NCBI GenBank assembly: GCA_020721205.1
Contig: DYNF01000023.1
Span: 1-51,449, forward strand
DNA length: 51,449 bases
DNA from: Prochloron sp. SulCav_FS08_3_32_3330
GTDB lineage: Bacteria > Cyanobacteriota > Cyanobacteriia > Cyanobacteriales > DYNF01
Direction: 5' to 3'
A program made the position numbers and the translations under genes. Under the pieces are notes generated by a model, which did not search any database, had not been told where the DNA came from, and saw nothing but the letters and a program-made list of their open reading frames with translations. Below, piece after piece: positions 352-46,757 of the stretch (position 1 is the stretch's first letter; the number at the start of each line of letters is the position of its first letter).

Positions 352-651
352 ATGATTGATATTGAACAAGTTAAAAAAGTGGCTCTTTTAGGACGTTTAG
401 AATTAACTCCTGAAGAAGAAAGTCAATTTTCCACTCAACTTAGTAGTATTTTAGATTATTTTGAGCAATTAAGTGAGTTAGATACTACTAATGTTCAGCC
501 TACTACCAGAGCGATCGAACTAAGTAATATAACTCGTCTTGATCAACAAAAAACCTACGGCGATCGGGAAGCTTTGTTAGATCAAGCCCCCCAAAGAGAT
601 GAGGACTTTTTTAGAGTGCCAAAAATTCTTAATACTGACGAAAATAATTAA
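352..651 (+). CDS. gatC: Asp-tRNA(Asn)/Glu-tRNA(Gln) amidotransferase subunit C
   Basis: This 99-residue protein has the normal length of GatC. GatC is the small subunit that stabilises the GatCAB amidotransferase, which converts mischarged Glu-tRNA(Gln), and in some species Asp-tRNA(Asn), to the amidated form. The N-terminal helical part ([20 protein letters not shown], residues 4-23) and the C-terminal FFRVPKIL are typical of the family. gatA and gatB are not nearby, as is common in cyanobacteria. No clear Shine-Dalgarno sequence precedes the ATG. A GCGATCGC octamer lies about 55 bases upstream. The gene is followed by a large palindromic repeat. Confidence 0.93.
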
Positions 652-658
652 ATAATTT

Positions 659-925
659 TGTTTGTTGTAGAGGCTCTAGCACGATTAATGCAGGGCGTTT
701 TTATTCTTTTTTTTACGACAGGTTAAAACCTCTCGCTACCCAAACAAAACCCGTCTTTACGGGTTATATGATTAAATATTAACTAATATTAAAAAATTAA
801 ACCTGCGTAGGCAGGTTTTGCTTATGTAGCAAGGGGTTTCAACCCTTTGCTACCCGAGAATGAAAACGCCCTGCTATTAATGTGGTGCTAAAAGCACGAA
901 TAAACTTATTTATTCTTAAAAATTT
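659..925. repeat. Nested palindromic intergenic element, copy 1
   Basis: This fills the 304-base gap between gatC and uppP. From outside in it has a weak arm pair (GTTTGTTG near 660, AATAAAC near 900), then GCAGGGCG / CGCCCTGC, then GGTTAAAACC-like and CAAGGGGTTTCAACCC-like palindromes. Two internal hairpins follow (ACCCGTCTTTACGGGT and AACCTGCGTAGGCAGGTT), joined by an AT-rich core containing TATTAACTAATATTAA. The same order occurs at 14451-14698 and, inverted, at 27327-27573 and 45308-45470. I see no open reading frame in it. A role in mRNA 3' processing or termination is possible but unproven. Confidence 0.75.
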
Positions 926-955
926 AGACTTATTTACTCTTAAAAATTTAAACCA

Positions 956-1849
956 TTGATTAATCATTTATTATTTAATTTTTTTCATTTAATTGTAACT
1001 CCTACAACGACGGATCCTCACACTCAAATTAACTGGTTTCAAGCGATTATTTTAGGCTTGGTACAAGGTTTAACTGAGTTTTTACCGATTAGTAGTACCG
1101 CCCATTTAAAAGTTATCCCCGTAGCATTCGGTTGGGGTGATCCGGGGGTTGCTTTTACGGCAATTATTCAACTCGGTAGTATTTTTGCGGTTTTATCTTA
1201 TTTTTGGCAGGATTTAACCCAAGTTTTCAGAGGTTCAATAAAAGCAATTAAATTTAAAAATTATGAGTCTAATGATTTTCGGATGGCTTTAGGCATTGCG
1301 ATCGGCACTTTACCCATTGTTTTTTTCGGTTTATTGTTAAAAATTCTTGTGCCTGACTTAGATAACTCAAATTTTCGGGGTTTAACTACCATTGCGATCG
1401 CCTCTATTATTATGGCTTTATTATTAGGTTTAGCAGAAAAAATCAGTAAACATGAGAGGAATTTTGATCATCTTAATACTAAAGATGGAATCTTAATGGG
1501 TTTAGCTCAGACTTTAGCTCTGATTCCCGGAGTATCACGCTCAGGATCAACGATTACGGCGGGGTTATTTATGGGTTTAGAGCGCTCAACTGCCGCCCGT
1601 TTTTCTTTTTTATTAGGGATTCCCGCTATAACTTTAGCAGGTTTAGTAGAATTAAAAGAGGTTTTAAGTGCAAGTTTTACAATTAATGAAATCATTGTTT
1701 TAATAATTGGCGTTATTTCCTCAGCAATTTTTTCTTATTTAGCGATCGCATGGTTAATTAAATATTTACAAAGAAAAGATACATGGATTTTTGTCTGGTA
1801 TCGTTTAGGTTTTGGGGTAGTAATTTTAATTAATCAATTATTATTTTAA
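956..1849 (+). CDS. uppP: Undecaprenyl-diphosphate phosphatase (BacA family)
   Basis: This integral membrane enzyme (297 residues, hydrophobic throughout) dephosphorylates undecaprenyl diphosphate to recycle the lipid carrier of peptidoglycan synthesis. Both family motifs are present: EFLPISSTAH (residues 41-50, with the catalytic Glu and Ser) and PGVSRSGST (191-199, with the essential Arg195). The frame opens just upstream at a TAA and has no ATG before the first helix, so TTG at 956 is the only plausible start unless the protein begins inside the first membrane segment. An imperfect hairpin follows the stop codon. Confidence 0.93.
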   Translation: MINHLLFNFFHLIVTPTTTDPHTQINWFQAIILGLVQGLTEFLPISSTAHLKVIPVAFGWGDPGVAFTAIIQLGSIFAVLSYFWQDLTQVFRGSIKAIKFKNYESNDFRMALGIAIGTLPIVFFGLLLKILVPDLDNSNFRGLTTIAIASIIMALLLGLAEKISKHERNFDHLNTKDGILMGLAQTLALIPGVSRSGSTITAGLFMGLERSTAARFSFLLGIPAITLAGLVELKEVLSASFTINEIIVLIIGVISSAIFSYLAIAWLIKYLQRKDTWIFVWYRLGFGVVILINQLLF

Positions 1850-1862
1850 AGATTAATTAAAG

Positions 1863-1923
1863 TAGGGTGGATAGGGGAAATAAATTGATCTTTTTCGATC
1901 AAAATTTAATTTCTTTGTCCACT
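1863..1923. repeat. Imperfect inverted repeat after uppP
   Basis: The arms are GTGGATAGGGGAAATAAATT with GATC, and GATC with the imperfect complement ending GTCCAC. They form a long stem with a short T-rich loop, and the repeat starts with GTAGGGTGG. The same GTAGGGTGG-type arm is found beside toxin-antitoxin loci at 16701, 17582 and 23576. It may serve as a transcript end for uppP, although no U-tract follows. Confidence 0.5.
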
Positions 1924-1981
1924 TTAAAAATTAACAAAATATGTTATTATATATAAAGAATAAATAAAGGAGTTAGTTTTT

Positions 1982-2482
1982 ATGAAATTATTAAATCGGG
2001 AAATTAACACTAATTTAGTTCAATCTCAAGTTAATTCATTAATCTTAGAATTTTTGCAGAGTGATGATCCCATAGCTGGGCAAATTAAAGAAATATTCAA
2101 AGATCAATCAATTAATGAAATTGCCGATAATTTAGCAAAGTTATGGTATTTAGAATCAGAAGATCAGGAAGATAATTTTTTAGATTTTTTTGTAACTCAT
2201 TCTGATGTAATCAAATCTCAAAATAACCGTAATGTTAGTTTAACTTATCCTCATTCTAATTTAGGATTAGTGGAATTAGTAGATGAATTATTAGATAAAT
2301 TAACAGAAATTTTTAGCAAAGCTCAAACAATTTTAGCCGTTAAAAATATAGAAGAAAATGAAGTCATATATGCTGATTTTTCGGAAATGGCTTATGATTT
2401 AGAATATCAGCAAGAGGCGTTAGAAATTGCCCAAGATTTTGCTTATACTGACTGGGAAGCATTAAAATTAAGTGAGGTTTAA
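1982..2482 (+). CDS. Unknown acidic protein directly upstream of MazF; candidate antitoxin
   Basis: I do not recognise a named family in this 166-residue, strongly acidic, mostly helical protein. It has no membrane segment and no obvious DNA-binding motif. A good Shine-Dalgarno (AAAGGAG, about 1968-1974) precedes the ATG. It is separated from the MazF gene by only three bases, so the two are surely co-transcribed and probably translationally coupled. An acidic partner just ahead of a MazF toxin fits an antitoxin role, but it is about twice the usual antitoxin length. It could instead be a conserved cyanobacterial protein of other function. Confidence 0.55.
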   Translation: MKLLNREINTNLVQSQVNSLILEFLQSDDPIAGQIKEIFKDQSINEIADNLAKLWYLESEDQEDNFLDFFVTHSDVIKSQNNRNVSLTYPHSNLGLVELVDELLDKLTEIFSKAQTILAVKNIEENEVIYADFSEMAYDLEYQQEALEIAQDFAYTDWEALKLSEV

Positions 2483-2485
2483 TTA

Positions 2486-2833
2486 ATGAAAAGAGGAGAA
2501 GTTTATTATGTTGATCTTAATCCCACAGAGGGATCAGAAATAAATAAAATACGTCCAGCAATTATTGTTAGTAATAATGAAATTAATCAATTTAGTACAG
2601 TTATTTTAATTGTACCTTGTACCACTTATAAAAAAGGAAGAAAAATCTATCGAAGTCAAGTATTAATCAAAGCTGATGAAGACGGTTTAACTAATGATTC
2701 TGTCGCTTTAGGAGAACAAATGAGATCAATTTCTAAAACTAGAATTAAAAGTAAGTTGGGTCAAATTTCTGATCAAGTTTTAACTAAAATAGATCAAGCT
2801 TTAGCTGTTGCTTTAAGTTTGAAATTGAAATAA
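2486..2833 (+). CDS. mazF: MazF/PemK-family mRNA interferase toxin
   Basis: This 115-residue protein has the MazF fold signature. It starts with the N-terminal strand RGEVYYVDLNPTEGSE and continues with KIRPAIIVSN (Arg23 of the active site, residues 21-30). The segment SVALGEQMRSISKTRI follows in the position of the conserved S/T-x-x-x-x-Q motif. MazF toxins cut single-stranded RNA at short sequence motifs and arrest growth when their antitoxin is lost. The gene follows a 166-residue acidic gene after three bases and precedes two small unknown genes, so the operon is longer than a standard two-gene pair. The cut-site specificity cannot be read from the sequence. Confidence 0.88.
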   Translation: MKRGEVYYVDLNPTEGSEINKIRPAIIVSNNEINQFSTVILIVPCTTYKKGRKIYRSQVLIKADEDGLTNDSVALGEQMRSISKTRIKSKLGQISDQVLTKIDQALAVALSLKLK

Positions 2834-2851
2834 AAATTTTAGGTGAATATT

Positions 2852-3271
2852 ATGACTTCTCTAATTAATAAAATTGATCAAAATAAAGTTAATAAAGCTT
2901 TTAATATGTTAGCAATGTCAGGAGAATTTAATCAAGATGATGGAGAAATTATTATTTTAATATCAAAAAATATTATAGAAAGAGGTGGCGAAATTTGGCA
3001 AAATTATATTCTTGATTTATCAATGGCAACAGATGTTATGATTAGTTATAATAAAAGAAAGCCTCTTTGTGTCCAATTAACCAGTTTATCAGATGAGTAT
3101 AACCAAAATAAATATCAAGATTGGCAAAAAACTCTTAAAAATTGGGGTATTGATCGAGGTTTATTTTTAAGCTATAATCCTAATGAGAAAAATTTTGTTA
3201 ATCAATTAGTTAACCTAGCTACTTATAATAGTGATCATCTAAAAACTGGTACTTATTTAAAATTTCCTTAA
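2852..3271 (+). CDS. Unknown 139-residue protein in the mazF operon
   Basis: The frame extends upstream to a GTG at 2843, but ATG at 2852 is preferred because AGGTG sits 6 bases before it, where a ribosome site should be. It starts 18 bases after mazF. No named family is recognised. The middle part has an acidic strand (ATDVMIS) followed by a strand PLCVQLTS, then a helix and GIDRGLFLSYNP. This order loosely recalls PD-(D/E)xK nuclease-like folds (D...QxK), but the lysine is missing, so a catalytic role is not supported. It is possibly an accessory or degenerate nuclease-fold protein. Confidence 0.6.
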   Translation: MTSLINKIDQNKVNKAFNMLAMSGEFNQDDGEIIILISKNIIERGGEIWQNYILDLSMATDVMISYNKRKPLCVQLTSLSDEYNQNKYQDWQKTLKNWGIDRGLFLSYNPNEKNFVNQLVNLATYNSDHLKTGTYLKFP

Positions 3272-3296
3272 TAAAACTTATTAATATTATTAAATT

Positions 3297-3785
3297 ATGG
3301 TTACTGCACAAAAAGCTAATCTTGAACAACAAAAACAAAAAATTGCTGATGCTTTAGCTGATGCTCAAAAAATGCAGGAAGATTGGCTAAAATATGGTTT
3401 AGATTTTGTTGATTTATATGTGGAAAATATAGATAGTGACTGGTTAGAAAATTGGGGTAATGATGAAGTATCTAAGCCATGTTTATTAAAGCAATTTTTC
3501 AATCAAAATTGTCAAAGTGTTAAGAAAATTAAGAACTTATTAGGTAATAAATTAGATCAATTTATTAATGATTGTGAAGTTTATCTTAATTTAGCTGATC
3601 AAGATGAACAACTTGAGCAAATTTTATTAGGTTTAAGAAACTGTTTAGGTTTAAATAATTCTGTTTTATTAGTAAGAGGAAATAACAATAACAATAACAA
3701 TTATAATTTTGATGAGGTTGAGTTATTGGAATTAGTTGAGAAATTATTAGAAGATTTTGAGGTATTTTCAAAGGATGAAAATTAA
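3297..3785 (+). CDS. Unknown acidic, coiled-coil-rich protein upstream of the CHAT gene
   Basis: This 162-residue protein starts 25 bases after the previous gene. The N-terminal 35 residues (KANLEQQKQKIADALADAQK) are predicted to be a helical coiled coil. The rest is acidic and leucine-rich. Near residues 128-136 there is a run of asparagines encoded by an AAT/AAC microsatellite (about 3680-3707), which may vary in length between strains. No catalytic motif is visible. It lies last in the four-gene group starting at 1982, with a 222-base repeat-containing gap before the TPR-CHAT gene. Any functional link to that gene is inference from position only. Confidence 0.55.
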   Translation: MVTAQKANLEQQKQKIADALADAQKMQEDWLKYGLDFVDLYVENIDSDWLENWGNDEVSKPCLLKQFFNQNCQSVKKIKNLLGNKLDQFINDCEVYLNLADQDEQLEQILLGLRNCLGLNNSVLLVRGNNNNNNNYNFDEVELLELVEKLLEDFEVFSKDEN

Positions 3786-3799
3786 AGATAAATTAAAAT

Positions 3800-3860
3800 A
3801 GTCGCTTTAGCAGACTTTTGCTATGAGCAATGAAATAAATTTCATTGCGAGATTAATACT
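3800..3860. repeat. Short palindromic repeat, uninterrupted form
   Basis: The hairpin GCAATGAAAT / ATTTCATTGC is preceded by CTTTAGCAGACTTTTGCTAT and followed by GAGATTAATACT. The same flanks occur at 49917-50090, where the hairpin is interrupted by about 115 bases containing another palindrome. This copy therefore looks like the empty site of a nested insertion. The rest of the 3786-4007 gap is AT-rich with no other feature seen. Confidence 0.6.
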
Positions 3861-4007
3861 CAAAACCTTTAACTTTAAAATAAGAGTAAGATTAATGATG
3901 ATAATATTTAACCCGCCTTGCAATAAATTGACAAGGAAACCAACAGCAAAAATCGGCTAAAGCGATTAAGATTAATTTTAAACCTTATTTAATAAAAAAA
4001 AATTAAT

Positions 4008-7000
4008 ATGTCTAAAGGATTTGGTCAACAAAATAAACCTCAAAATCAAAAACAACAATATCAAATTTATCGTAAATTTGTTGAAGATTTATTTAATGCT
4101 GTTTCACGCCAAAAAGCAAAAAAAATACTTATTAAAAATATACATAAGATAGATGTTCTGTTTATAGAAATATTTATTAAATATTACACTCAACTAATTG
4201 AGGAAAATTTAGAATCACACAAAGAACTAATTTCCAAAAAATTTTGTGCATTAATGGGATTGCTTCAAGAATTAAGTATTGATAATTTAGTAAAGAATAT
4301 AGAGGTTGCTATAATAGGGTTTAATTTTTTGCTTAGTCAATGTCAAAATAATTCGGAAATTGAGGTAATGGTAAAATACCAACTAGGAATTGCTTATCTT
4401 AAACGTATTAATGGCGAGAAACGAGAAAATATAGAGATAGCGATAACATTTTTTAAAAATGCTTTACAAGCATCTAATCGTGATCAATATGGGAAAATAC
4501 AAATTTTCTTGGGAATTGCTTATGTTGAACGCATTGAAGGCGAAAAAAGAGATAATTTAGAAAAGGCAATTACTTATTGTGAAAATGCTTTACAAATATT
4601 TACCCGTGAGTCTTTTCCTGAAAATTGGGCAATGATTCAAACTCTCTTAGCAAGAGTTTATATAATTTATATAAAACTTATAGAAGGACATCAAAAAGAG
4701 AATTTAGAAAAGGCAATTACTGATTGTGAAAACGCCTTACAAATATTTACCCGTAAGGCTTTTCCTGAAGATTGGGCTGAACTTCAAAATAACTTAGGGA
4801 TTATTTACAGAAACCGTATCAAAGGCGAGAAAAGAGAAAATATAGAAAAAGCGATAATATCTTTTAAAAATGCTTTACAAATATATAATCTTGAGGAAAA
4901 GACTCAAGACTGGGCTGGTATTCAAAGCAACTTAGCAATTTCTTATGCTCAAAGAATTGAGGGAGAAAAAAAGGATAATTTAGAAACAGCAATTGCTTAT
5001 TTTAAAGATGCTTTACAAATAATAAATTGTGAAAAAAATCCTTATGGTTGGGCTGATATTCAAAATAATTTAGGTGATACTTATTTAAAACTTCTTGAAG
5101 TAGATCAAAAAAATAATTTACAAATAGCAATTACTTGTTTTGAAAATGCTTTATCAGTATGTACTCATGAAGCTTTTCCTGAAAAATGGGCAATGTTTCA
5201 AGGTAATTTAGGAAATTGTTATTCACAAAGTACAGAAGGAGAAAAAAGAGATAATTTAGAAAAAGCAATATCTTATTATCAAAATGCCTTAGAAGTATTG
5301 ACTTTTGATTCTTTTCCTCAAGATTGGACAATGCTACAAACTAATTTAGGAATTGCTTACTTACAAAGAATCGAAGGTAAGAAAAAAGATAATTTTTTAA
5401 ATGCTATCATTTATTTTAAAAATGCTTTGCAAATTCATACTCCAAAAGCATTTCCTTTATCTTGTCTACAAAATGCCCGTAATTTAGGAAATATAGGAGT
5501 TGTTTTGCAAAATTGGCAATTAGCAATAGAAGGTTACAGTTTAGCAATTGAAGCAATAGAAATAACTCGTAGTTGGGCAAAAACTGATCAACGCCGTCAA
5601 GAAATTTTAGCTCAATCTCTTGATGTTTATGAAAATATGGTACAAGCTTGTATTAATGCAGGAGAATTAGAAAAAGCCATTGAAACAGTAGAAAGATCAC
5701 GGAGTAAATATTTAGTTGATTTAATGGCAAGTAATGACTTATATAATGATGGTAAAATACCGCCCGAAGTTGAATCTTTATTACAAAAATATCAAAAAAA
5801 ACAAAACCAAATTGACTTAGAACAATCTTTGCTTAAAAATAACTCTAATAATGAGAAAAAATTAGATCGGATTTCTTTTGATCGTTCTAATGAAACTATT
5901 GAAGAATTAAACAAAGAAAAACAACAAATTTGGCTAGAAATTCGTAAATTTGATCCCGTTTTAGCAGGAGAAATTAAAGTTGATCCCTTGCCATTTTCCG
6001 CAATGCAAAAATTAATTAAATCTCCTGATACTGCTATCCTTAGTTTTTATACCACTAAGACAGATACTCATATATTTATTATTAAACAGCCCTCACCCCC
6101 TGCCCCTCTCCCACAGGGCGAGGGGTGTAATGGAATTTACCTTTATACTTGTGAGGGAGAAGGTTTAGATAATTTACAAAATTGGCTTAGTGAAAATTGG
6201 TTACAAACCTATATTAATAATTATCAAAATTGGTTAGATAATATTAATAATATTCTCACTAAATTATCCCAAAAATTAAAACTTAATCAATTAATAGATC
6301 AACATTTAAACGATATTCAAGAATTGATAATTATTCCCCATTTAAGTTTACATTTAATACCCTTTTCTGCTTTACCTATTAATGAAAGCGAATATTTAGG
6401 CGATCGCTTTTTAATTCGTTATACTCCTAGCAGTCAAATCTTAAAATTTTGTGATGAAAGAAACCCCATTAAAACTAATCTTAAATATGGCACAGTAGAA
6501 GATGCTACAAATGATTTACCCTGTGCTAGTTTTGAAGGTGATCAAATAGCTAATTTATATAATATTCCTGATCAATTTAGATTACAAGGAAAGGCAAATG
6601 CTACCTGTGAAAATTATCGAGAATTAATGAAAAAAGTTAATATTATTCATTCTTGTCACCATGCAAAATTTAACTTAAATGATCCTTTAAATTCTGCTTT
6701 AGAATTAAGTGATGGTAAGATAACTTTAGGGCAATTAATGTCACCTTCATGGCGTTTTGATAAAACCTTATCTGATGTATTTTTATCCTGTTGTGAAACG
6801 GGTTTAGGTACACCTGAAATAACTGATGATATTTTAACTCTTTCAGCAGGTTTTTTATGTGCAGGGGCTAGAAGTGTAATTAGCACTTTATGGGCTGTAA
6901 ATGACCTTGCAACCGCTTTATTTTCACTTTTTTATTATCAATATCGTAATGAAGAAAAAACTCGTCCACAAGCTTTAAAACAAGCACAGATTAAGTTAAG

Positions 7001-15521: not shown

Positions 15522-16661
15522 TTATTTACTATTAACTGAAATTACCCCATTAATACCACCAAAACCAAAACTTAAACATAAAGCATTATTTACCTTTTGA
15601 AACTCAGCTTGATTAACAAAATTAAGAGTAAAATCAGGATTTTGTAAGCCCACACAAGGGGGCAAAATCTGTGTATTTAGAGTTTTAAGAGTGAAAGCAA
15701 AACCTAAAGCTCCAGAAGCCCCTAAAGTGTGACCAGTCGCACCTTTTGTCGAAGTAATAAAAACAGAAGGGGAAAATAAAGATTGAATTAAATCTGCTTC
15801 CATTCTGTCATTTAAAAGGGTACTTGTGCCATGAGTATGAATTAAATTAATATCATTTACAGATAAATTACTGTATTTTAAACAGTTTATAATTGCTTTT
15901 TTTGCTCCTTTACCGGATAAAGAAGGTGCAGTAATCTGATCACCGTCAGAGGTTAAACCAAAACCGAGGATTTCACCGTAAATTTTTGCTCCTCTTTTCT
16001 GAGCTAATTCTGCCGTTTCTAAAACAAAAACCGCTCCCCCTTCCCCTAAAACTAAGCCTTCTCTCCTCTGATCAAAAGGATAACAGCCAGTTTTAGCCAA
16101 TGCCCCAATATTTTTAAAAGCGGCTAAAGTTAAAGGTGTAATGGGGCTTTCCACCGCTCCAACTAATACCCGATCGCATTCTCCCATTTTAATTAATTCA
16201 AAACCTCGCGCGATCGCTACAATCCCCGTCGCACAAGCCGCCATCGGAGCAAATACCATTTTTTGAGAGCCTACAATTTGACTCGCAATAAGCGCACATT
16301 GATGAGGTAAACTCTCTAAAAAACGATTATTAGGGGGAACATCAGTTCGTCTTTGAGTGATTAAATCCTCTAAAATATATTGAAAACCTCGACTAGAGCC
16401 AATCACAATACCAGATTCAGGTAAAGGGGGAGTAAGTTGTGCATCTTGTAAAGCATCTTTAACAATTTTTCTAGTTAATTCCGTTAAATTAGTAGGTATA
16501 TTATCAATATTTGCTAAAGGAAAAGCCTCTAAATCTAAAAAAGGTTGTTGAATTTTAATAGCAGATTTTCCTTCTAATAAACTTTCCCAACTTTGACTTA
16601 AATTTCCTAAAGCAGAAATTAAACCGATTCCCGTTACTACTACCTCTGTTTCTAATGACAT
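15522..16661 (-). CDS. Beta-ketoacyl-ACP synthase (KAS II / FabF-like, divergent)
   Basis: This 379-residue condensing enzyme has the full Cys-His-His triad: Cys143 in MAACATG, His277 in HTHGTS and His311 in KGATGHTLGASG. The C-terminal SFGFGGINGV loop is typical. It is about 35 residues shorter than the usual FabF and clearly divergent. Cyanobacteria carry a second FabF-like synthase besides the canonical one, and this looks like that paralogue. It converges with cbbY 36 bases away, and a truncated hairpin repeat lies in the gap. Confidence 0.85.
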   Translation of the reverse strand: MSLETEVVVTGIGLISALGNLSQSWESLLEGKSAIKIQQPFLDLEAFPLANIDNIPTNLTELTRKIVKDALQDAQLTPPLPESGIVIGSSRGFQYILEDLITQRRTDVPPNNRFLESLPHQCALIASQIVGSQKMVFAPMAACATGIVAIARGFELIKMGECDRVLVGAVESPITPLTLAAFKNIGALAKTGCYPFDQRREGLVLGEGGAVFVLETAELAQKRGAKIYGEILGFGLTSDGDQITAPSLSGKGAKKAIINCLKYSNLSVNDINLIHTHGTSTLLNDRMEADLIQSLFSPSVFITSTKGATGHTLGASGALGFAFTLKTLNTQILPPCVGLQNPDFTLNFVNQAEFQKVNNALCLSFGFGGINGVISVNSK

Positions 16662-16700
16662 TAATTTTAATAATTAAATTCCTATTTTTTGATATTATGT

Positions 16701-16761
16701 AGGGTGGACAATTTTAAATTAAATTTGTATTCTAAACAATAACTTTAATAATTGCCCATCT
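16701..16761. repeat. GTAGGGTGG-type inverted repeat upstream of the DUF433/DUF5615 pair
   Basis: The repeat starts GTAGGGTGGACAATT and ends AATTGCCCATC, giving imperfect complementary arms around an AT-rich loop. A relative lies just after the toxin gene at 17582-17646, so the pair is bracketed by members of one repeat family. Confidence 0.5.
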
Positions 16762-16873
16762 TAAAAGTAAGATAAACAATCTTAAATTAAAAAGCAGGGC
16801 ATACTTTACAAACTCATTTTGAGTTATAATAAATTTTAATAAAGTCAAAAGTCTATTAATTTTAAAAATCACC

Positions 16874-17164
16874 ATGACAACAACTATTGACATCGGTACA
16901 TTAATCATAAACAATCCTAAAATTTGTAACGGAAAACCTTGTATTGCTGGAACAAGAGTTAGAGTTATTAATATAGTTATTGATTATCAAAACGGTAAAA
17001 CTCCAGAAGAAATTGCTCAAGAAAGAACTCATCTTACCCTAGCACAGATTTACTCAGCTTTAGCTTATTATCATGCTAATAAAGCAGAAATTGAACAAGA
17101 AATTTCTGATTATTCTGCTGAATGTTTATATTGGGAAAATCAAGCAAGAGAGGGCAAGATTTAA
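16874..17164 (+). CDS. DUF433-family antitoxin
   Basis: This 96-residue protein has the DUF433 hallmark NPKICNGKPCIAGTRVRV (residues 14-31) followed by a helix-turn-helix-like part with GKTPEEIAQE. DUF433 proteins are antitoxin/regulator partners of DUF5615 PIN-like toxins. The stop codon overlaps the start of the next gene by one base (TAATG), so the two are translationally coupled. Confidence 0.88.
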   Translation: MTTTIDIGTLIINNPKICNGKPCIAGTRVRVINIVIDYQNGKTPEEIAQERTHLTLAQIYSALAYYHANKAEIEQEISDYSAECLYWENQAREGKI

Positions 17165-17532
17165 TGAATTATATTTGTTGGTATCTTGATGAAGATGTTA
17201 TTCAAAAAAGTTTAATCACCGCTTTACTGAAAGAAAATTTAGATATTTTAACAACTGCTGATGTTAATAGATTGGGTTATTCTGATGAACAACAATTAAT
17301 TTGGGCAAAGGAACAAAATCGGGTTATTTATACCTTTAATGTAGGTGATTTTTGTCGCTTACATAAAAAATTTATTCCCCAAGGAAAAAATCATGCAGGA
17401 ATTGTTTTAGGACAACAACAACGCTATTCTATCGGACAACAATTACAAGGTTTATTAAATATTACTGCTCAAATTTCATCGGAACAAATACAAAACAAAA
17501 TTATTTTTCTTAGTAATTATATTTTATCATAA
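17164..17532 (+). CDS. DUF5615 (PIN-like) toxin
   Basis: The frame extends further upstream, but ATG at 17164 is chosen because it overlaps the antitoxin stop (TAATG) and begins the family's first strand. The product has 122 residues and starts with YLDEDV (acidic active-site candidates Asp9, Asp11). A later FNVGDF acidic motif also fits the PIN-like/Mut7-C nuclease fold. It is probably an RNase toxin neutralised by the DUF433 protein. Confidence 0.85.
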   Translation: MNYICWYLDEDVIQKSLITALLKENLDILTTADVNRLGYSDEQQLIWAKEQNRVIYTFNVGDFCRLHKKFIPQGKNHAGIVLGQQQRYSIGQQLQGLLNITAQISSEQIQNKIIFLSNYILS

Positions 17533-17581
17533 ATCTTGTAAATTTATCGTTATTGCCGTTTCTAAATCAAGAGTTTAATTT

Positions 17582-17646
17582 GTAGGGTGGGCAGTCTGTT
17601 ATAATTATCGTAAAAAATAGACAATCTTAATAACTGCCACTCTACA
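17582..17646. repeat. GTAGGGTGG-type inverted repeat after the DUF5615 toxin
   Basis: The arms are GTAGGGTGGGCAGT and ACTGCCACTCTACA, with an AT-rich interior. It lies 50 bases after the toxin stop and begins a 440-base gene-free stretch (17533-17972) made almost wholly of palindromic repeats. Confidence 0.65.
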
Positions 17647-17670
17647 AACTAATAGATTCAAAAGTCGGGT

Positions 17671-17725
17671 ATTTTCTTATTACTCATGATCGGATAATAA
17701 AATTAAGTAAAATCCCCGACTTTTA
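17671..17725 (+). repeat. Left member of a direct repeat bracketing vapBC
   Basis: This 55-base sequence, starting ATTTTCTTATTACTCATGAT and ending CCCCGACTTTTA, recurs at 18621-18675 with three mismatches by eye. With AAAGTCGGGT just before it (17661) it forms a hairpin whose arms are AAAAGTCGGG and CCCGACTTTT. Confidence 0.8.
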
Positions 17726-17730
17726 ACAAT

Positions 17731-17927
17731 CTGTAGGGGCATGACATCAATAACATTTGTCAATAACCATTTAATTATATTTTGTCATGCCCAACCCCAT
17801 CAATAACCATCAAAAATAAATCTAAATTTTGTTTTATTTTTAATGTAACGGTTAGGTTGGGCATGGCATTTTTTAGGTTAATTGTTGTTATCATAAATTA
17901 AGGATGCCATGCCCCTACAGAAATTTT
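17731..17927. repeat. Long palindromic repeat with GTAGGGGCATG ends
   Basis: The outer arms CTGTAGGGGCATG and CATGCCCCTACAG enclose a second inverted pair, CATGCCCAACC and GGTTGGGCATG. A partial relative occurs at 46690-46757. There is no open reading frame. It lies between the left direct repeat and the vapB-like gene. Confidence 0.7.
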
Positions 17928-17972
17928 AATTTTTTAAGATATAATTTAATTAAACTTGTTTGAGGTAAAATT

Positions 17973-18191
17973 ATGATCAAAACAATTGATGTCACAGACT
18001 TAAAACCAGAACAAATTAAACAAATACAAGCTATGATTGAACAATTAAAATCAAAAAATGATCTTGATCATACAATAATAAATCAAGATAAATCAAAAAT
18101 CATTGATAATATTGATATGACTGATATTTTCTTTGAAAGTGAAATTATCCAACCATTTGATCGGAGTATGCTTTATGGGAAAAGAGGCTAA
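17973..18191 (+). CDS. Small VapB-like antitoxin of a PIN toxin pair
   Basis: This 72-residue, charged protein starts after a plausible ribosome site (GAGGTAA) and overlaps the next gene by 17 bases. The N-terminus (IDVTDLKPEQIKQIQAMIEQ) is helical. The C-terminus, which probably wraps the toxin, is acidic until the last few residues. I assign it as antitoxin from size and overlap with the PIN gene. No named DNA-binding family is clear. Confidence 0.7.
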   Translation: MIKTIDVTDLKPEQIKQIQAMIEQLKSKNDLDHTIINQDKSKIIDNIDMTDIFFESEIIQPFDRSMLYGKRG

Positions 18192-18615
18192 TTTAATTTA
18201 TTTAGATACTAATATTTTGGCTTATGTTTCTAATACAAAATCACTTCAACATAAGACGGCTTTAGAAATATTTAGACCCTGTGAAACTGAAATTTTATGT
18301 GTTTCATCTCCTGTCTTAGCTGAGTTTTATTCTTATGTGACTAATCCTTCAATTTTAGTAACACCTTTAGATTCAAAATCAGCTATTCAACGCATAAAAA
18401 GAATTTGTCAAATGTCTCATATTCGAGTTTTACCAACCCCAGAGGATTTATTTGAACGCTGGTTAATTTTACTTGAACAAAGACCTGTTATTAATGGCGG
18501 AATTTTTGATTTAATTCATATTGCAATTATGTTAGCTTATGGTATCAAAAAAATCTATACATTTAATGTTAATGATTTTGTCTGGTGTTCTGAAATTGAG
18601 GTAATAGAATTATGA
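18175..18615 (+). CDS. vapC: PIN-domain toxin (VapC-like)
   Basis: ATG at 18175 is chosen over upstream starts because the protein then begins MGKEANLIYLDTN, with the PIN strand in its normal place. The product has 146 residues. Metal-binding acids are at Asp11 (LDTN), Glu50 (LAEF), Asp112 (IFDLIHIAIM) and Asp134 (FNVNDF), the full VapC-type set. VapC enzymes are Mg-dependent RNases, often cutting tRNA or rRNA. The repeat at 18621 starts six bases after the stop. Confidence 0.88.
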   Translation: MGKEANLIYLDTNILAYVSNTKSLQHKTALEIFRPCETEILCVSSPVLAEFYSYVTNPSILVTPLDSKSAIQRIKRICQMSHIRVLPTPEDLFERWLILLEQRPVINGGIFDLIHIAIMLAYGIKKIYTFNVNDFVWCSEIEVIEL

Positions 18616-18620
18616 AAAGC

Positions 18621-18675
18621 ATTTTCTTATTCCTCACGATCAGATAATAAAATTAAGTAAAATCCCCGACTTTTA
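18621..18675 (+). repeat. Right member of the direct repeat bracketing vapBC
   Basis: This matches 17671-17725 at 52 of 55 positions by eye. It lacks the GTCGGG left arm found beside the first copy, so it cannot form the same hairpin. It abuts the vapC stop codon. The rest of the gap to gltB is AT-rich with no feature that I can support. Confidence 0.8.
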
Positions 18676-18880
18676 TAGATTTAAGTCAATTTCTGGAGAA
18701 AGAATATCCTTCAAATAAATTTGCTTCCCCTTGTATCTTGCGATTAATCTAGCAAAAAATTTAAAAAAAGGAATAAATTATACAACAAAGTTATAAAATA
18801 ACAGGCACAATGGTAAAACTGTCAAGTTGTCCAAATAAAGCGAAAATAGTTACAATTTTACAACCAATATATTTTAACCT

Positions 18881-21800
18881 ATGCAAATGAATCAAAATAC
18901 ATTTCCAGAAAAACAAGGCTTATATGATCCGGCTTTTGAGCATGATGCTTGTGGTGTGGGCTTTATTGTTCATAAAAAAGGACAAAAATCTCATGATATT
19001 GTTCAACAAGCTTTAACTATTTTAGTTAACTTAGAACATCGGGGGGCTTGTGGCTGTGAGCCTAATACGGGCGACGGTGCAGGGATTTTAATGCAAGTTC
19101 CTGATAAATTTCTACAAAAAGTGGCTACTGCTGAAAATATTACTTTACCCTCGGCGGGAAAATATGCGGTGGGTATGATTTTTTGCTCTCCTGATGCTGA
19201 AGTGAGAAAAGAGCGTTTTGCTGAATTTGAAAAAATTGTAGCACAGCAAGGATTAAATATCTTAGGTTGGCGCAAAGTTCCCACGAATAATAGCCCCTTG
19301 GGTGATACCGCTAAAGCGTCTGAGCCTTGTGTTTATCAAGTATTTATTAGTGGCACAGGCATCTTGCCCGTATCTGATCAATCTGTCTCAAAAGAGGATC
19401 AGTTAGCTTTCGATCGCACCTTATTCGTGATTCGGAAATTAACTGGGAGTAATTTTCGAGCAAAAGACCCATTTTGGTACATTCCTAGCATTTCCTGTCG
19501 TACCCTAATTTATAAAGGAATGTTGACCACAATGCAAGTAGGACAATATTACCCGGATCTACAGGATCCTGATCTGGAGAGTGCTTTAGCTCTTGTTCAT
19601 TCCCGTTTTAGTACCAATACTTTTCCTAGTTGGGAAAGATCTCACCCCTATCGTTATATTGCCCATAATGGAGAAATTAATACTTTAAGGGGTAATATTA
19701 ACTGGATGTATGCTCGACAAGCTCTATTTGAATCTGAATTATTTGGAGATAATTTAAAGAAAGTTCAGCCTATTATTAATGCTAATGGTAGTGATTCTAG
19801 TATATTTGATAATGCTTTAGAAATATTAACTTTATCAGGGCGATCGCTTCCCCATGCTGTCATGATGATGATACCTGAGCCTTGGACTGGTCATGAGTCC
19901 ATGAGTCCAGAGAAAAAAGCATTTTATCAATATCACTCTTGTTTAATGGAGCCTTGGGATGGACCTGCTTCCATCGCTTTCACTGATGGGACAATGATGG
20001 GAGCTTGTTTAGATCGTAACGGTTTACGTCCTTCTCGATATTACGTTACTAAAGATGATTTAGTCATTATGGCATCAGAAGCGGGGGTTTTACCGATTCC
20101 CCCAGAAAATGTGGCTTATAAAGGACGTTTAGAACCGGGTAGAATGTTTTTAGTTGATATGGAACAAGGTAGAATCATTGCTGATGAAGAAATTAAACAG
20201 CAAATAGCTACAGAACACCCTTATCAAGACTGGTTAAATCAACATTTAGTTACCTTGGATCAACTTACTCAAACTGTAGAAATTCCTGAATCCGATCCTA
20301 ATAGTTTAGTTCAACGTCAAACAGGTTTTGGTTATACCTTTGAAGAAGTAAGAATGTTACTCGCACCGATGGCTCAAAATGGAGTGGAAGCGGTAGGAGC
20401 AATGGGAACAGATACCCCTCTAGCTGTACTTTCTGACCGTCCTAAACTATTATATGATTACTTTCAACAATTATTCGCTCAAGTAACAAATCCGCCGATT
20501 GATTCCATTCGAGAAGCGATTATTACTTCTGCTACAACTACCATTGGCTCTGAAAGAAATTTACTTAAACCAGAACCAGAAAGTTGTCATTTAATTGAGT
20601 TAAATAGTCCCATTTTAACGAATGAAGAATTAGCAAAATTAAAAGCATTAAATAATGATGGTTTTAAATCAATAACTCTCCCTATTCTGTTTAATCCAAA
20701 TGAAGGAGTTAAAGGATTAGAAAAAGTAATGGAGAGCATTTTTGCTCAAGCAGATCAGGCGATTAAAGATGAGGTAAATATCATTATTTTATCTGATCGA
20801 AATATGGACAAAAATAACGCTCCTATTCCCGCTTTATTAGCCGTTTCTGGACTACATCATCATTTAATTCGTGCGGGGACAAGAACTAAAGTTGGTATTG
20901 TTTTAGAATCGGGAGAACCTAAAGAAGTTCACCATTTTGCTGTGTTAATCGGTTATGGTTGTGGAGCGATTAATCCCTATTTAGTCTATGAAACTATAGA
21001 CTCAATGATTGAACAGAAATTAATCTTAAATATTGACCAAAAAACTGCTTGTAAAAATTATATTAAAGCAGTAACAAAAGGGGTAATTAAAATTGCTTCA
21101 AAAATTGGTATTTCTACTATTCAAAGTTACCGAGGCGCGCAAATATTTGAATCTATCGGTTTAAATCAAACGGTGATTGATCAATATTTCACTTGGACAG
21201 CTTCTCGCATCGAAGGTGTAGACTTAGAAGTGATTACTAAAGAGGCGATCTTGCGTCATCATAATGGCTACCCCGATCGGGATGTTAAAGTACCTGTTTT
21301 AGACGTGGGAGGGGAATATCAATGGCGTAAAGAAGGTGAGCGTCATTTATTTAGTCCTGAAACTATTCACACTTTACAACAGGCAACTTGGCATAATGAT
21401 TATGAGTTATATAAGAAATATGCGAACTTAGTTAATGACCAAACTAAAGAGCATTTCACCCTTCGAGGCTTATTAGAGTTTAAAGAGTGTACTTCCATTC
21501 CTCTGGAAGAAGTAGAGCCGATTGAGAGTATTATGACTCGGTTTAAAACAGGAGCGATGAGTTACGGCTCGATCTCGAAGGAAGCCCATGAATCACTGGC
21601 GATCGCCATGAATCGAATCGGCGGTAAATCCAATACGGGTGAAGGAGGCGAGGATCCTGAGCGTTTTACATGGACAAACGAGCGGGGAGACTCTAAAAAT
21701 AGTGCCATTAAACAGGTCGCTTCCGGGCGTTTTGGGGTGACAACGCAATATTTATCCCAAGCTAAGGAAATTCAAATTAAAATGGCACAAGGAGCAAAAC

Positions 21801-23497
21801 CGGGTGAAGGTGGACAACTTCCGGGCTTAAAGGTTTATCCTTGGATTGCCAAAGTGCGTCACTCTACACCAGGTGTAGGTTTGATCTCACCGCCCCCTCA
21901 CCATGATATCTACTCCATTGAAGATTTAGCCGAATTAATCCACGATCTGAAAAATGCTAATCGTGAAGCGCGGATTAATGTTAAATTAGTGAGTGAGGTG
22001 GGAGTGGGTACAATCGCCACAGGAGTAGCGAAGGCACACGCAGACGTGATCTTAATTTCCGGTTTTGACGGTGGTACAGGCGCATCACCTCAAACCTCGA
22101 TTAAACACGCAGGATTACCTTGGGAGTTAGGTTTAGCGGAAACTCATCAAACTTTGGTATTAAATAACCTCCGTAGTCGAGTGGTAGTAGAAACCGATGG
22201 ACAGATGAAAACCGGACGAGATGTAATCATAGCCGCCCTTTTAGGCGCTGAAGAATACGGTTTTGCCACTGCGCCCCTTGTCACTTTAGGCTGTATCATG
22301 ATGCGGGTATGTCATAAAAATACTTGCCCCGTTGGTATCGCTACCCAAAATCCAGAATTGCGGAAAAAATTTAGCGGAGATCCCGCCTATACCGTTAATT
22401 TCATGCGTTTTATTGCTCAAGAAATGCGAGAAATTATGGCTGAGTTAGGTTTCCGTAATCTTAATGAAATGATCGGACGAAGTGATATCTTAGAAGCCCA
22501 AAAAGCCGTATCTCACTGGAAAGCGAAAGGTTTAGACTTTTCTAAGATATTATATCAACCGGAAGTAGGAGAAAATGTCGGACGATATTGCCAAATCCCT
22601 CAAGATCACGGTTTAGATAAATCTCTCGATATCACTACCTTACTCGATCTCTGTCAATCAGCGATCGAAAAAGGTGAGAAAATTGAGGCTACTTTACCCA
22701 TTAAAAATATTAACCGGGTAGTAGGGACAATTTTGGGTAATGAAATCGTCAAAAAACATTGGGAAGGCTTACCAGAAGACACAATTCACCTTCATTTTCA
22801 AGGAAGTGCTGGTCAAAGTTTCGGAGCTTTTGTACCTAAAGGAGTAACTTTAGAATTAGAAGGAGACGGAAATGACTATGTTGGTAAAGGATTAAGCGGT
22901 GGTAAAATCATCGTTTATCCTGACAAAAAATCCACCTTTAAACCCGAAGAAAATATCATTATTGGTAACGTCGCCTTATACGGTGCTACCAGTGGCGAGG
23001 TTTATATATGCGGAGTAGCGGGAGAGCGTTTCGGTGTGCGTAATTCCGGCGTTAATACCGTAGTGGAAGCCATTGGCGATCACGGTTGCGAATATATGAC
23101 AGGGGGTAAAGTGGTGATATTAGGAGCTACCGGGCGTAATTTTGCGGCGGGAATGAGTGGCGGTATCGCTTATATTTTTGATGAAAAAGGCGATTTTGCC
23201 CCTAAATGTAACCGAGAAATGGCTGATTTAGAAACCCTTGAAGATCCAGAAGAAATTGCGGATCTTAAGCAATTAATTTCTAATCATGCTAACTATACGG
23301 GCAGTAAAAAAGCGACGGAAATTTTAACAAATTGGGAAGCAAGTGTTAAAACTTTTGTTAAAGTAATGCCTCGGGATTATAAGCGGGTATTACAAGCAAT
23401 TAAAAACGCTTTAGAAAAAGGTTTAAGTGGTGATGAAGCTTTAAGTGATGCTTTTGAGCAAAATGCCAAAGATGTCGCCCGAATCGGTGGAAGTTAA
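18881..23497 (+). CDS. gltB: Glutamate synthase large subunit, NAD(P)H (GltB) type
   Basis: This 1538-residue amidotransferase makes glutamate from glutamine and 2-oxoglutarate in the GS-GOGAT pathway. The domains are a class II glutaminase (nucleophile Cys24 in HDACGVGF after a 23-residue propeptide, to about 430), a central domain, an FMN/2-oxoglutarate synthase domain (about 830-1200) and a GXGXG helix domain (about 1270-1510). The 3Fe-4S cysteines are Cys1138, Cys1144 and Cys1149. [16 protein letters not shown] is of NADH-GOGAT type, unlike the GCMEHRGGCxADNDSGDG of ferredoxin enzymes. gltD is not adjacent. Residues 158-164 (GTGILPV) look like a translated repeat. ATG at 18887 is an alternative start. 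Confidence 0.93.
19352..19372 (+). repeat. Repeat-derived GTGILPV segment inside gltB
   Basis: This 21-base segment contains the imperfect palindrome ACAGGCATCTTGCCCGT and encodes GTGILPV (residues 158-164) in a stretch of the glutaminase domain where GltB relatives vary in length. GTGILPV is a peptide I recognise as a recurrent product of an interspersed repeat. In-frame insertion is inferred. Confidence 0.45.
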
Positions 23498-23506
23498 CGA
23501 ATAAAA

Positions 23507-23568
23507 GTCGGGGATTTAAGATAGGTTAATCTTAAAATCATAAGCTAATTAAAATCCCCGACTTTTAG
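23507..23568. repeat. Inverted repeat after gltB
   Basis: The arms AAAAGTCGGGGATTT and AAATCCCCGACTTTT are fully complementary over 15 bases around a 32-base AT-rich loop. The arms match those at 17661-17725. It starts 10 bases after the gltB stop and may fold at the 3' end of the mRNA. Confidence 0.75.
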
Positions 23569-23575
23569 ATTAAAC

Positions 23576-23647
23576 AAGGTGGACAACTATTAAAATTTAT
23601 TGCTAAAAACAAAAACTTAATGACAGTTGCCCACCCTACCAATACTT
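23576..23647 (+). repeat. Left direct repeat bracketing hicBA
   Basis: This 72-base sequence begins AAGGTGGACAACTATTAAAA and contains GTTGCCCACCCTAC near its end. It recurs at 24152-24223 with four mismatches by eye. Internally GTGGACAACT and AGTTGCCCAC are near-complementary. Confidence 0.85.
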
Positions 23648-23720
23648 GCTAATGATCAAAATTAATGTTATCATTAATTGGAATATATATTAATCCTAAT
23701 TAATTGACAAAAAAAAATTT

Positions 23721-23918
23721 ATGAAAATAAAAGCAATAATTCACACAGCAGAAGAAGGGGGTTTTTGGGCAGAAGTACCAATTTTTCAAGGCTGTTATAC
23801 CCAGGGGGAAACCATTGAAGAAGTATTAGAAAATCTCAAAGAAGTGATCAGTTTATATGTAGAAGATGAGCCGCAAAATCTTAGCCCTTCTGATCGGGTA
23901 GTGGAGTTAACAATATGA
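23721..23918 (+). CDS. hicB: HicB-family antitoxin
   Basis: This 65-residue protein has the HicB partial RNase H-like fold: KAIIHTAEEGGFWAEVPIFQ, then GCYTQGETIEEVLENLKEVI. It lacks a C-terminal DNA-binding domain, as many short HicB proteins do. Its TGA overlaps the next start as ATGA. The order hicB-hicA is the reverse of the classical E. coli arrangement but is common elsewhere. Confidence 0.9.
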   Translation: MKIKAIIHTAEEGGFWAEVPIFQGCYTQGETIEEVLENLKEVISLYVEDEPQNLSPSDRVVELTI

Positions 23919-24118
23919 AGACAATATCGGGTAAAAAATTAGCAGAAATTTTGCAAAAGAAAGGCTGGATTTTAATTAGAATTAAAGGAAGTCATCATCG
24001 TTTTCAAAAAGATAATATGAGTATTTCTATTCCTATTCACAGAAATCAAGATTTAAAAATTGGACTTTTAAAAAGTTTAATGAAACAAGCTAATTTAACT
24101 GAATCTGATCTTATTTAA
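23915..24118 (+). CDS. hicA: HicA-family mRNA interferase toxin
   Basis: This 67-residue dsRBD-like toxin has the family pattern SGKKLAEILQKKGW, then GSHHRF with the catalytic His (27 or 28), then ISIPIHRNQDLKIGLLKSLM. It overlaps hicB by four bases (ATGA), indicating coupled translation. HicA cleaves mRNA in a translation-independent way. The pair is bracketed by 72-base direct repeats. Confidence 0.93.
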   Translation: MKTISGKKLAEILQKKGWILIRIKGSHHRFQKDNMSISIPIHRNQDLKIGLLKSLMKQANLTESDLI

Positions 24119-46500: not shown

Positions 46501-46689
46501 TTATCCCATTATATATAGTATTTTTATTTAAAATTTGGGCATCTGGCATCTGTACCTGTGAGGGGCATCTTGACCTATCCTACATAACAGACAAGATGTT
46601 TCACAACAAACAAAGGACAAAAAATTAAGTTTTTACCACAAATCAATTAAGACTGCGATCAATTGCCTTTTGTATCTTAAAATATCTGT

Positions 46690-46757
46690 AGGGGAAACTT
46701 GGCATCGTTAATTTATGATCATAAAAAATAACCTAACAAATGCCATGCCCAACCCAA
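46690..46757. repeat. Partial GTAGGGGCATG-family palindromic repeat
   Basis: It starts CTGTAGGGGAAACTTGGCAT and ends ATGCCATGCCCAACCC, like the element at 17731-17927. It makes up part of the 349-base gap 46446-46794. The rest holds the hairpin at 46466 and a stretch with GGCATCTGGCATCTG near 46539, where I see no gene. Confidence 0.5.

What the first reader, a model, noticed from the sequence alone, without database searches (positions are those of the whole stretch)
17671..18675. vapBC cassette bracketed by 55-base direct repeats
The segment with the GTAGGGGCATG palindrome and vapBC lies between two copies (52 of 55 the same) of one sequence, the right one starting six bases after the vapC stop. 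Such an arrangement allows loss or gain of the cassette by recombination and may show how it arrived.
Basis: seen in the sequence. Interest (0 to 1): 0.6.

Follow-up and report, generated by a model that had tools for sequence, protein, structure and literature searches.

The report
Toxin-antitoxin cassette between duplicated flanks
A two-gene toxin-antitoxin unit in a cyanobacterium lies between two nearly identical 55-base sequences, and unrelated units of this kind in this and other cyanobacteria also start and end exactly between two copies of their own local flanking DNA, which suggests how such units settle into chromosomes without a transposase.

Summary
In detail: 17671-17725 and 18621-18675 match at 52/55 and bracket vapB (17973-18191) and vapC (18175-18615), the right copy starting at the sixth base after the vapC stop. 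The repeat belongs to a dispersed 64-66-nt palindromic family (about 40 copies or more in the genome), but these two copies are each other's closest relatives (94%; next 89%). Close relatives are not held, so the window's own empty site could not be tested. Elsewhere the pattern is strong. Orthologous vapBC units in other cyanobacteria are bracketed by direct repeats of unrelated sequence: 7 clean cases of 29, 87-189 nt, right copy 1-17 nt after the vapC stop, left copy 12-134 nt before vapB. In G033 and G008 the repeats are duplicated native target (gene end plus mnmG start; gene X 3' end). Other TA families in the window's genome show the same (6/47 loci; controls 3/1109 windows, 2/119 short ORFs). 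I conclude that TA modules here enter by insertion with long target duplication, described before for restriction-modification systems. How the window's own pair arose is less certain: its right junction carries a relic of another TA module. Gain or loss by repeat recombination is not shown.

The parts
17660..17724 (+).
17730..17921 (.). GTAGGGGCATG...CATGCCCCTAC palindromic MITE-like element M, a family with many hits in the genome; taken here as a later addition between left copy and vapB
   Evidence: I1; 116 hits of the whole query, most of them in this part
17973..18191 (+). vapB-like antitoxin, 72 aa, no Pfam match above cut-off, orthologous to the gene upstream of vapC in other cyanobacteria
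18175..18615 (+). vapC, PIN-domain toxin, 146 aa, overlaps vapB; its last residues (EVIEL) replace the usual EVIDPS(H/N)L-like ending of orthologs
   Evidence: (PF01850, 52.4 bits, cut-off 23.6)
18598..18624 (+). 27 nt identical to a toxin-antitoxin junction on C95 (2074-2100): end of a small toxin gene plus start of a Phd/YefM-type antitoxin; relic of a second TA unit, the only other copy in the genome
18621..18675 (+). Right copy of repeat A, lacking the left arm (profile positions 12-65)
16874..17532 (+). Neighbouring DUF433-DUF5615 pair (second likely TA pair, outside the bracket)
23503..23566 (.). Third full copy of repeat A, 6 nt after the gltB stop

Best explanation
[quoted passage not shown] In the window the duplicated stretch is a dispersed palindromic repeat. 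The locus was later reshaped: a MITE-like element lies between the left copy and vapB, and two short-homology deletions (about 9 nt each, TGAGGTAAT and ATTTyCTTA) removed most of a neighbouring TA module (toxin plus Phd-type antitoxin) and the end of vapC. Inferred mechanism: break repair or template switching that copies a module and rejoins upstream of the break. Such direct repeats would normally collapse by recombination, but loss of an addiction module is punished, so the scar persists. Shown: repeats, boundaries, relic, target duplication at other loci. Inferred: that the same kind of event made the window's pair, the repair mechanism, and the role of addiction.
For: Repeats and boundaries in the window; the two copies are sisters. 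Orthologous vapBC in other cyanobacteria bracketed by direct repeats of unrelated sequence, right copy 1-17 nt after the vapC stop, left copy 12-134 nt before vapB (L079, L080, L220, L225, L226, L228, L232); in the window the left distance is 248 nt, or 56 without the 192-nt M. G033: both copies contain the end of the upstream gene plus promoter and start of mnmG, i.e. the native junction is duplicated; in G075 (same genus) that junction runs on unbroken in the left copy, with a different 3.4-kb insert carrying its own 201-nt duplication. G008: gene X with its 3' end, vapBC, then a second copy of the gene X 3' end. Other families in the own genome: VapBC on C17 (65 nt; copies end 15 nt before and start 7 nt after), ParE on C151 (64 nt), YafQ on C4, YoeB on C163, small toxin plus Phd on C95. 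Enrichment 6/47 vs 3/1109 windows (p 2.5e-7) and vs 2/119 short ORFs (p 0.007); other genomes 3/24 and 1/25 vs 0/187.
Against: No empty site for the window could be examined. Repeat A is dispersed, so other routes to two copies exist. The vapC end is fused to a relic of another TA module, so the duplication may belong to that earlier module. Most TA loci (41 of 47) and most vapBC orthologs show no bracket. Against the matched short-ORF control the enrichment is modest. Several brackets in the set use dispersed repeats (L286, L394, L385) and may not be target duplications.
Confidence: 0.58

Rival explanations
1. The cassette was gained by homologous recombination between dispersed A repeats: a circle or transformed fragment carrying vapBC and one A copy recombined with a resident A copy, leaving one on each side.
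For: A is dispersed with about 40 copies or more. Several other TA units in this genome lie between A or M-A copies (C4, C95, C163). In G079 and G301 TA units and other accessory genes are strung in arrays separated by copies of one sequence (gene X 3' ends).
Against: The window copies are each other's closest relatives, and so are the two on C163; exchange between dispersed copies would mix lineages. In G033 and on C17 the repeat is the local gene flank, not a dispersed element. No circle was testable.
Confidence: 0.2
2. A tandem duplication of an A-plus-TA unit followed by decay of one TA copy left A-TA-A.
For: C4 (L073) shows a tandem array A-antitoxin-A-toxin-antitoxin-A-antitoxin with nearly identical units. 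L082 and L235 hold partial vapB copies next to repeat copies.
Against: In G033 the duplicated sequence is the unbroken junction of the two native neighbour genes, which a tandem duplication of a unit containing vapBC cannot give. No second vapBC remnant lies outside the window repeats; the relic found is of a different TA family.
Confidence: 0.12
3. No mobility: A elements are ordinary palindromic intergenic (terminator-like) repeats that happen to stand on both sides, kept alike by gene conversion.
For: A copies stand right after genes (third copy 6 nt after gltB), fold into strong hairpins and form a large family.
Against: Tight bracketing is rare around control windows and short ORFs and more common around TA units, with boundaries at the toxin stop in unrelated families and sequences.
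Confidence: 0.1

Closest known systems
Insertion with long target duplication of restriction-modification systems (Nobusato et al. 2000; Furuta et al. 2010; both known here only as cited in review PMC3874152)
   Same: Small addiction-type gene units without a transposase, flanked by long and variable (order of 100 bp) direct repeats of the target
   Different: Here the units are type II toxin-antitoxin modules of several families in cyanobacteria; the right end is set at the toxin stop codon; arrays with repeated target 3' ends occur. I found no paper in the held library that reports this for TA modules, but the library is incomplete.
Type II VapBC toxin-antitoxin modules (cyanobacterial vapBC, e.g. 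Synechocystis vapBC10 and vapBC15, PMC3834315 and PMC5924515)
   Same: PIN-domain toxin downstream of and overlapping a small antitoxin gene
   Different: The antitoxin has no recognised Pfam DNA-binding domain; the focus here is the flanking duplication, not the toxin
Chromosomal TA modules at plastic insertion sites (E. coli ccdO157, mazEF, dinJ-yafQ and others, as reviewed in PMC7167474)
   Same: TA units inserted between conserved neighbours in some strains only; the review says that the mechanism of integration is unelucidated
   Different: Long direct repeats at the ends give a testable signature of the integration
Integron gene cassettes and composite transposons
   Same: Small genes between repeated sites, arrays
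   Different: No integrase or transposase between the repeats; repeat sequence differs from locus to locus

Membership tests
Insertion with long target duplication | Long direct repeats, tens to hundreds of bases, directly at the ends of the inserted unit | tested here: met
   Window 55 nt, 95%; orthologs 87-189 nt; other TA families 64-131 nt
Insertion with long target duplication | Repeat is the target itself, single copy at the empty site in a relative | tested here: inconclusive
   For the window not testable (no close genome held). For the same vapBC family at mnmG: both copies hold the native gene junction, and G075 shows it unbroken in its left copy, although with another insert. G008: gene X plus second 3' end
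Insertion with long target duplication | No transposase or recombinase within the unit | tested here: met
   Only vapB and vapC are credible genes between the repeats
Type II VapBC module | PIN-domain toxin above the curated cut-off | tested here: met
   PF01850 52.4 bits, cut-off 23.6
Type II VapBC module | Overlapping upstream antitoxin gene with DNA-binding domain | tested here: inconclusive
   Overlapping 72-aa gene conserved with vapC, but no Pfam domain above cut-off
Type II VapBC module | Toxicity and neutralisation | not testable with these tools
   needs expression tests
Composite transposon or integron cassette | Transposase or integrase, terminal repeats common to all copies | tested here: not met
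   None between the repeats; repeats of orthologous units are unrelated in sequence
Cassette exchanged by recombination of dispersed repeats | Flanking copies of different lineages, or circle and deletion junctions | tested here: inconclusive
   Copies are sisters; circles and junctions not testable

The most novel reading that the evidence does not exclude
Type II TA modules of many families in cyanobacteria are small mobile units in their own right: one transposase-free process inserts them with their right end at the toxin stop codon, duplicates 50-200 bases of target, and by repeated use of one target builds integron-like arrays (gene X 3' ends in G079 and G301), while addiction protects the direct repeats from collapse.
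Probability: 0.33. Interest if true: 0.85.

Novelty: new variant of a known kind. Interest (0 to 1): 0.62.

Why it matters
How toxin-antitoxin modules move and integrate is stated to be unelucidated (review PMC7167474). A duplicated-target signature with sharp boundaries makes the question testable by comparing sister genomes and by experiment, and would put TA modules beside restriction-modification systems as addiction units that insert with long target duplications. It also offers a reason why such scars persist: losing the unit by recombination between the repeats is punished.

Tried and rejected
Empty site in close relatives: gltB DNA in 60 relatives gave only same-order genomes (about 72% aa identity of gltB, no vapBC upstream); the single genome-contig scan gave at best 69%. 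Rfam: nothing in 16500-24000. Plasmids: only a 31% VapC, so no plasmid vehicle seen. PADLOC: no match. Terminator scan found none by its strict rule, although A folds strongly. Chance bracketing by a common repeat: rejected as sole explanation by the controls. Tandem duplication as general model: rejected for G033 because the native junction is duplicated. Control hits checked: a repeated nuclease-like gene and terminator-like repeats, not TA. Papers on RM mobility (PMC2853133) and ccdO157 (PMC2666520) are not held. No structure prediction was run: the fold of a PIN toxin would not bear on the question.

Full report
Observation. Between them lie the GTAGGGGCATG palindrome (17730-17921) and two overlapping genes, a 72-aa antitoxin-like gene (17973-18191) and a 146-aa PIN-domain toxin (18175-18615; PF01850, 52.4 bits against a cut-off of 23.6). 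The right copy begins at the sixth base after the vapC stop.

What the repeat is. The left copy is the larger part of a palindromic element of 65 nt (17660-17724) with arms AAAAGTCGGGTATTTT and AAAATCCCCGACTTTT; the right copy lacks the left arm. The element, called A here, is dispersed: about 40 copies or more in the 4.73-Mb cyanobacterial genome, one more of them in the window 6 bases after gltB (23503-23566). Interiors vary strongly. The two copies in question agree at 94%, their best other relatives at 84-89%. A few other places show the same: on C163 two A copies that are most like each other enclose an antitoxin and a YoeB toxin; on C4 three near-identical copies stand in an array with a HigB-like toxin and its presumed antitoxin; on C4 two M-A composites enclose a YafQ pair, 53 nt before the antitoxin and 17 nt after the toxin stop.

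Window history. 27 bases at 18598-18624, between vapC and the right copy, are identical to one other place in the genome, C95:2074-2100, where they are the end of a small toxin-like gene (RelE/ParE-like by eye, no Pfam match) and the start of a Phd/YefM-type antitoxin gene (Pfam match just under its cut-off). C95 itself has A, half of the GTAGGGGCATG element, this TA pair, A again, and a second TA pair. The window right junction therefore looks like vapC joined to a relic of such a module at a short homology (TGAGGTAAT), and the start of its antitoxin joined to A at another (ATTTyCTTA). This is inference from sequence. It means that the A...A bracket may predate vapBC.

Orthologous vapBC elsewhere. 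vapC relatives were found in 60 and then 391 genomes of the order. In 7 of 29 examined loci vapBC lies tightly between direct repeats, with unrelated repeat sequences: L079 87 nt 94%, L080 93 nt 95%, L220 170 nt 86%, L225 189 nt 88%, L226 105 nt 94%, L228 119 nt 80%, L232 164 nt 96%; two further loci with a masked or decayed vapBC (L234, L235) look alike. The right copy starts 1 to 17 nt after the vapC stop, the left copy ends 12 to 134 nt before vapB. In the window these are 6 (counted as base position) and 248, or 56 if the 192-nt GTAGGGGCATG element is a later arrival. The seven are not seven independent events: L079 and L226 are one site, and several share the gene X target described next.

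Evidence of target duplication at two of these sites. In G033 the right copy directly after vapC holds the last codons of the upstream gene (KIKFLQVVRLLQ, stop), the intergenic stretch and the start of mnmG; the left copy holds the same. In G075, same genus, the junction of these two genes is unbroken in the left copy, and a different 3.4-kb insert (two Uma2-like genes, a DUF433-DUF5615-like pair, an SMI1/KNR4-like gene; names by eye, DUF433 by similarity to the window gene) has its own 201-nt duplication. In G008 a long gene (X) is present with its 3' end, then vapBC, then a second copy of the last 22 codons of X. In G079 the intact gene X is followed by four fragments of its 3' end, with accessory units between them, vapBC being one; G301 has a similar string without the intact gene.

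Generality. Loci of PIN and ParE matches in the own genome (49 and 26 matches; 47 loci with enough flank) were tested for a repeat of at least 50 nt and 80% ending within 500 nt on one side and starting within 100 nt on the other side of the toxin domain: 6 of 47, against 3 of 1109 windows from 506 kb of contigs chosen by number (Fisher p 2.5e-7) and 2 of 119 short ORFs (p 0.007). The clearest is on C17: a DUF2281 antitoxin and a PIN toxin between two 65-nt copies (89%) of the leader of the next gene, 15 nt before the antitoxin and 7 nt after the toxin stop. ParE on C151: 64 nt, 92%, 9 nt after the stop. In other genomes relatives of these two toxins gave 3 of 24 and 1 of 25, controls 0 of 187; L393 duplicates 125 nt of the upstream gene, right copy 5 nt after the toxin ORF. 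Some brackets use dispersed repeats and are weaker evidence (L286, L394, L385).

Interpretation. [quoted passage not shown] For TA modules I found no report in the held library, and a 2020 review calls their mode of integration unelucidated (PMC7167474). The molecular step is not shown. Template switching during break repair would give a short insert flanked by duplicated target without any transposase; an addiction module would then be kept because loss by recombination between the repeats is costly. Both are inference. Recombination between dispersed A copies, tandem duplication with decay, and coincidence remain as rivals for the window itself.

Limits. No genome of the same family is held, so the window's empty site is untested. 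The genome is a draft of 209 contigs. The control of short ORFs is small. Counts of bracketed loci include related insertions. Toxin activity was not tested.

Noticed in passing
window 23503-23566: A third full copy of palindromic repeat A stands 6 nt after the gltB stop and folds at -23.9 kcal/mol; the family may serve as intergenic terminators.
   Followed up: partly
window 17580-17655: Another palindromic stretch (TTTGTAGGGTGGGCAG ... CTGCCACTCTACAAA) just left of repeat A, with partial matches on C163 and C34.
   Followed up: no
window 16874-17532: A DUF433-DUF5615 pair directly upstream, a second likely TA pair between the same two housekeeping genes; a similar pair is on C186 (L069) and in the G075 insert (L249).
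   Followed up: partly
window 46677-46757: A further fragment of the GTAGGGGCATG element in the same window.
   Followed up: no
L249 (G075:C202:5800-13000) 1686-5482: At the same mnmG site as the vapBC insertion of sister genomes, a different 3.4-kb insert is flanked by its own 201-nt duplication of the mnmG 5' end: an insertion hot spot.
   Followed up: partly
L259 (G079) 541-5793 and L261 (G301) 773-3696: Arrays in which TA pairs and other small accessory genes are separated by copies of the 3' end of one gene (gene X), resembling cassette arrays without an integrase.
   Followed up: partly
L073 (G000:C4:49000-53000) 1162-2977: Tandem array of repeat A with near-identical antitoxin-like genes and one HigB-like toxin.
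   Followed up: partly
L068 (G000:C95:1-6000) 1000-2650: Two TA pairs within one split GTAGGGGCATG element between ureG and ureD, with repeat A on both sides of the first pair.
   Followed up: partly
whole genome G000: Very TA-rich genome: 49 PIN and 26 ParE domain matches.
   Followed up: no
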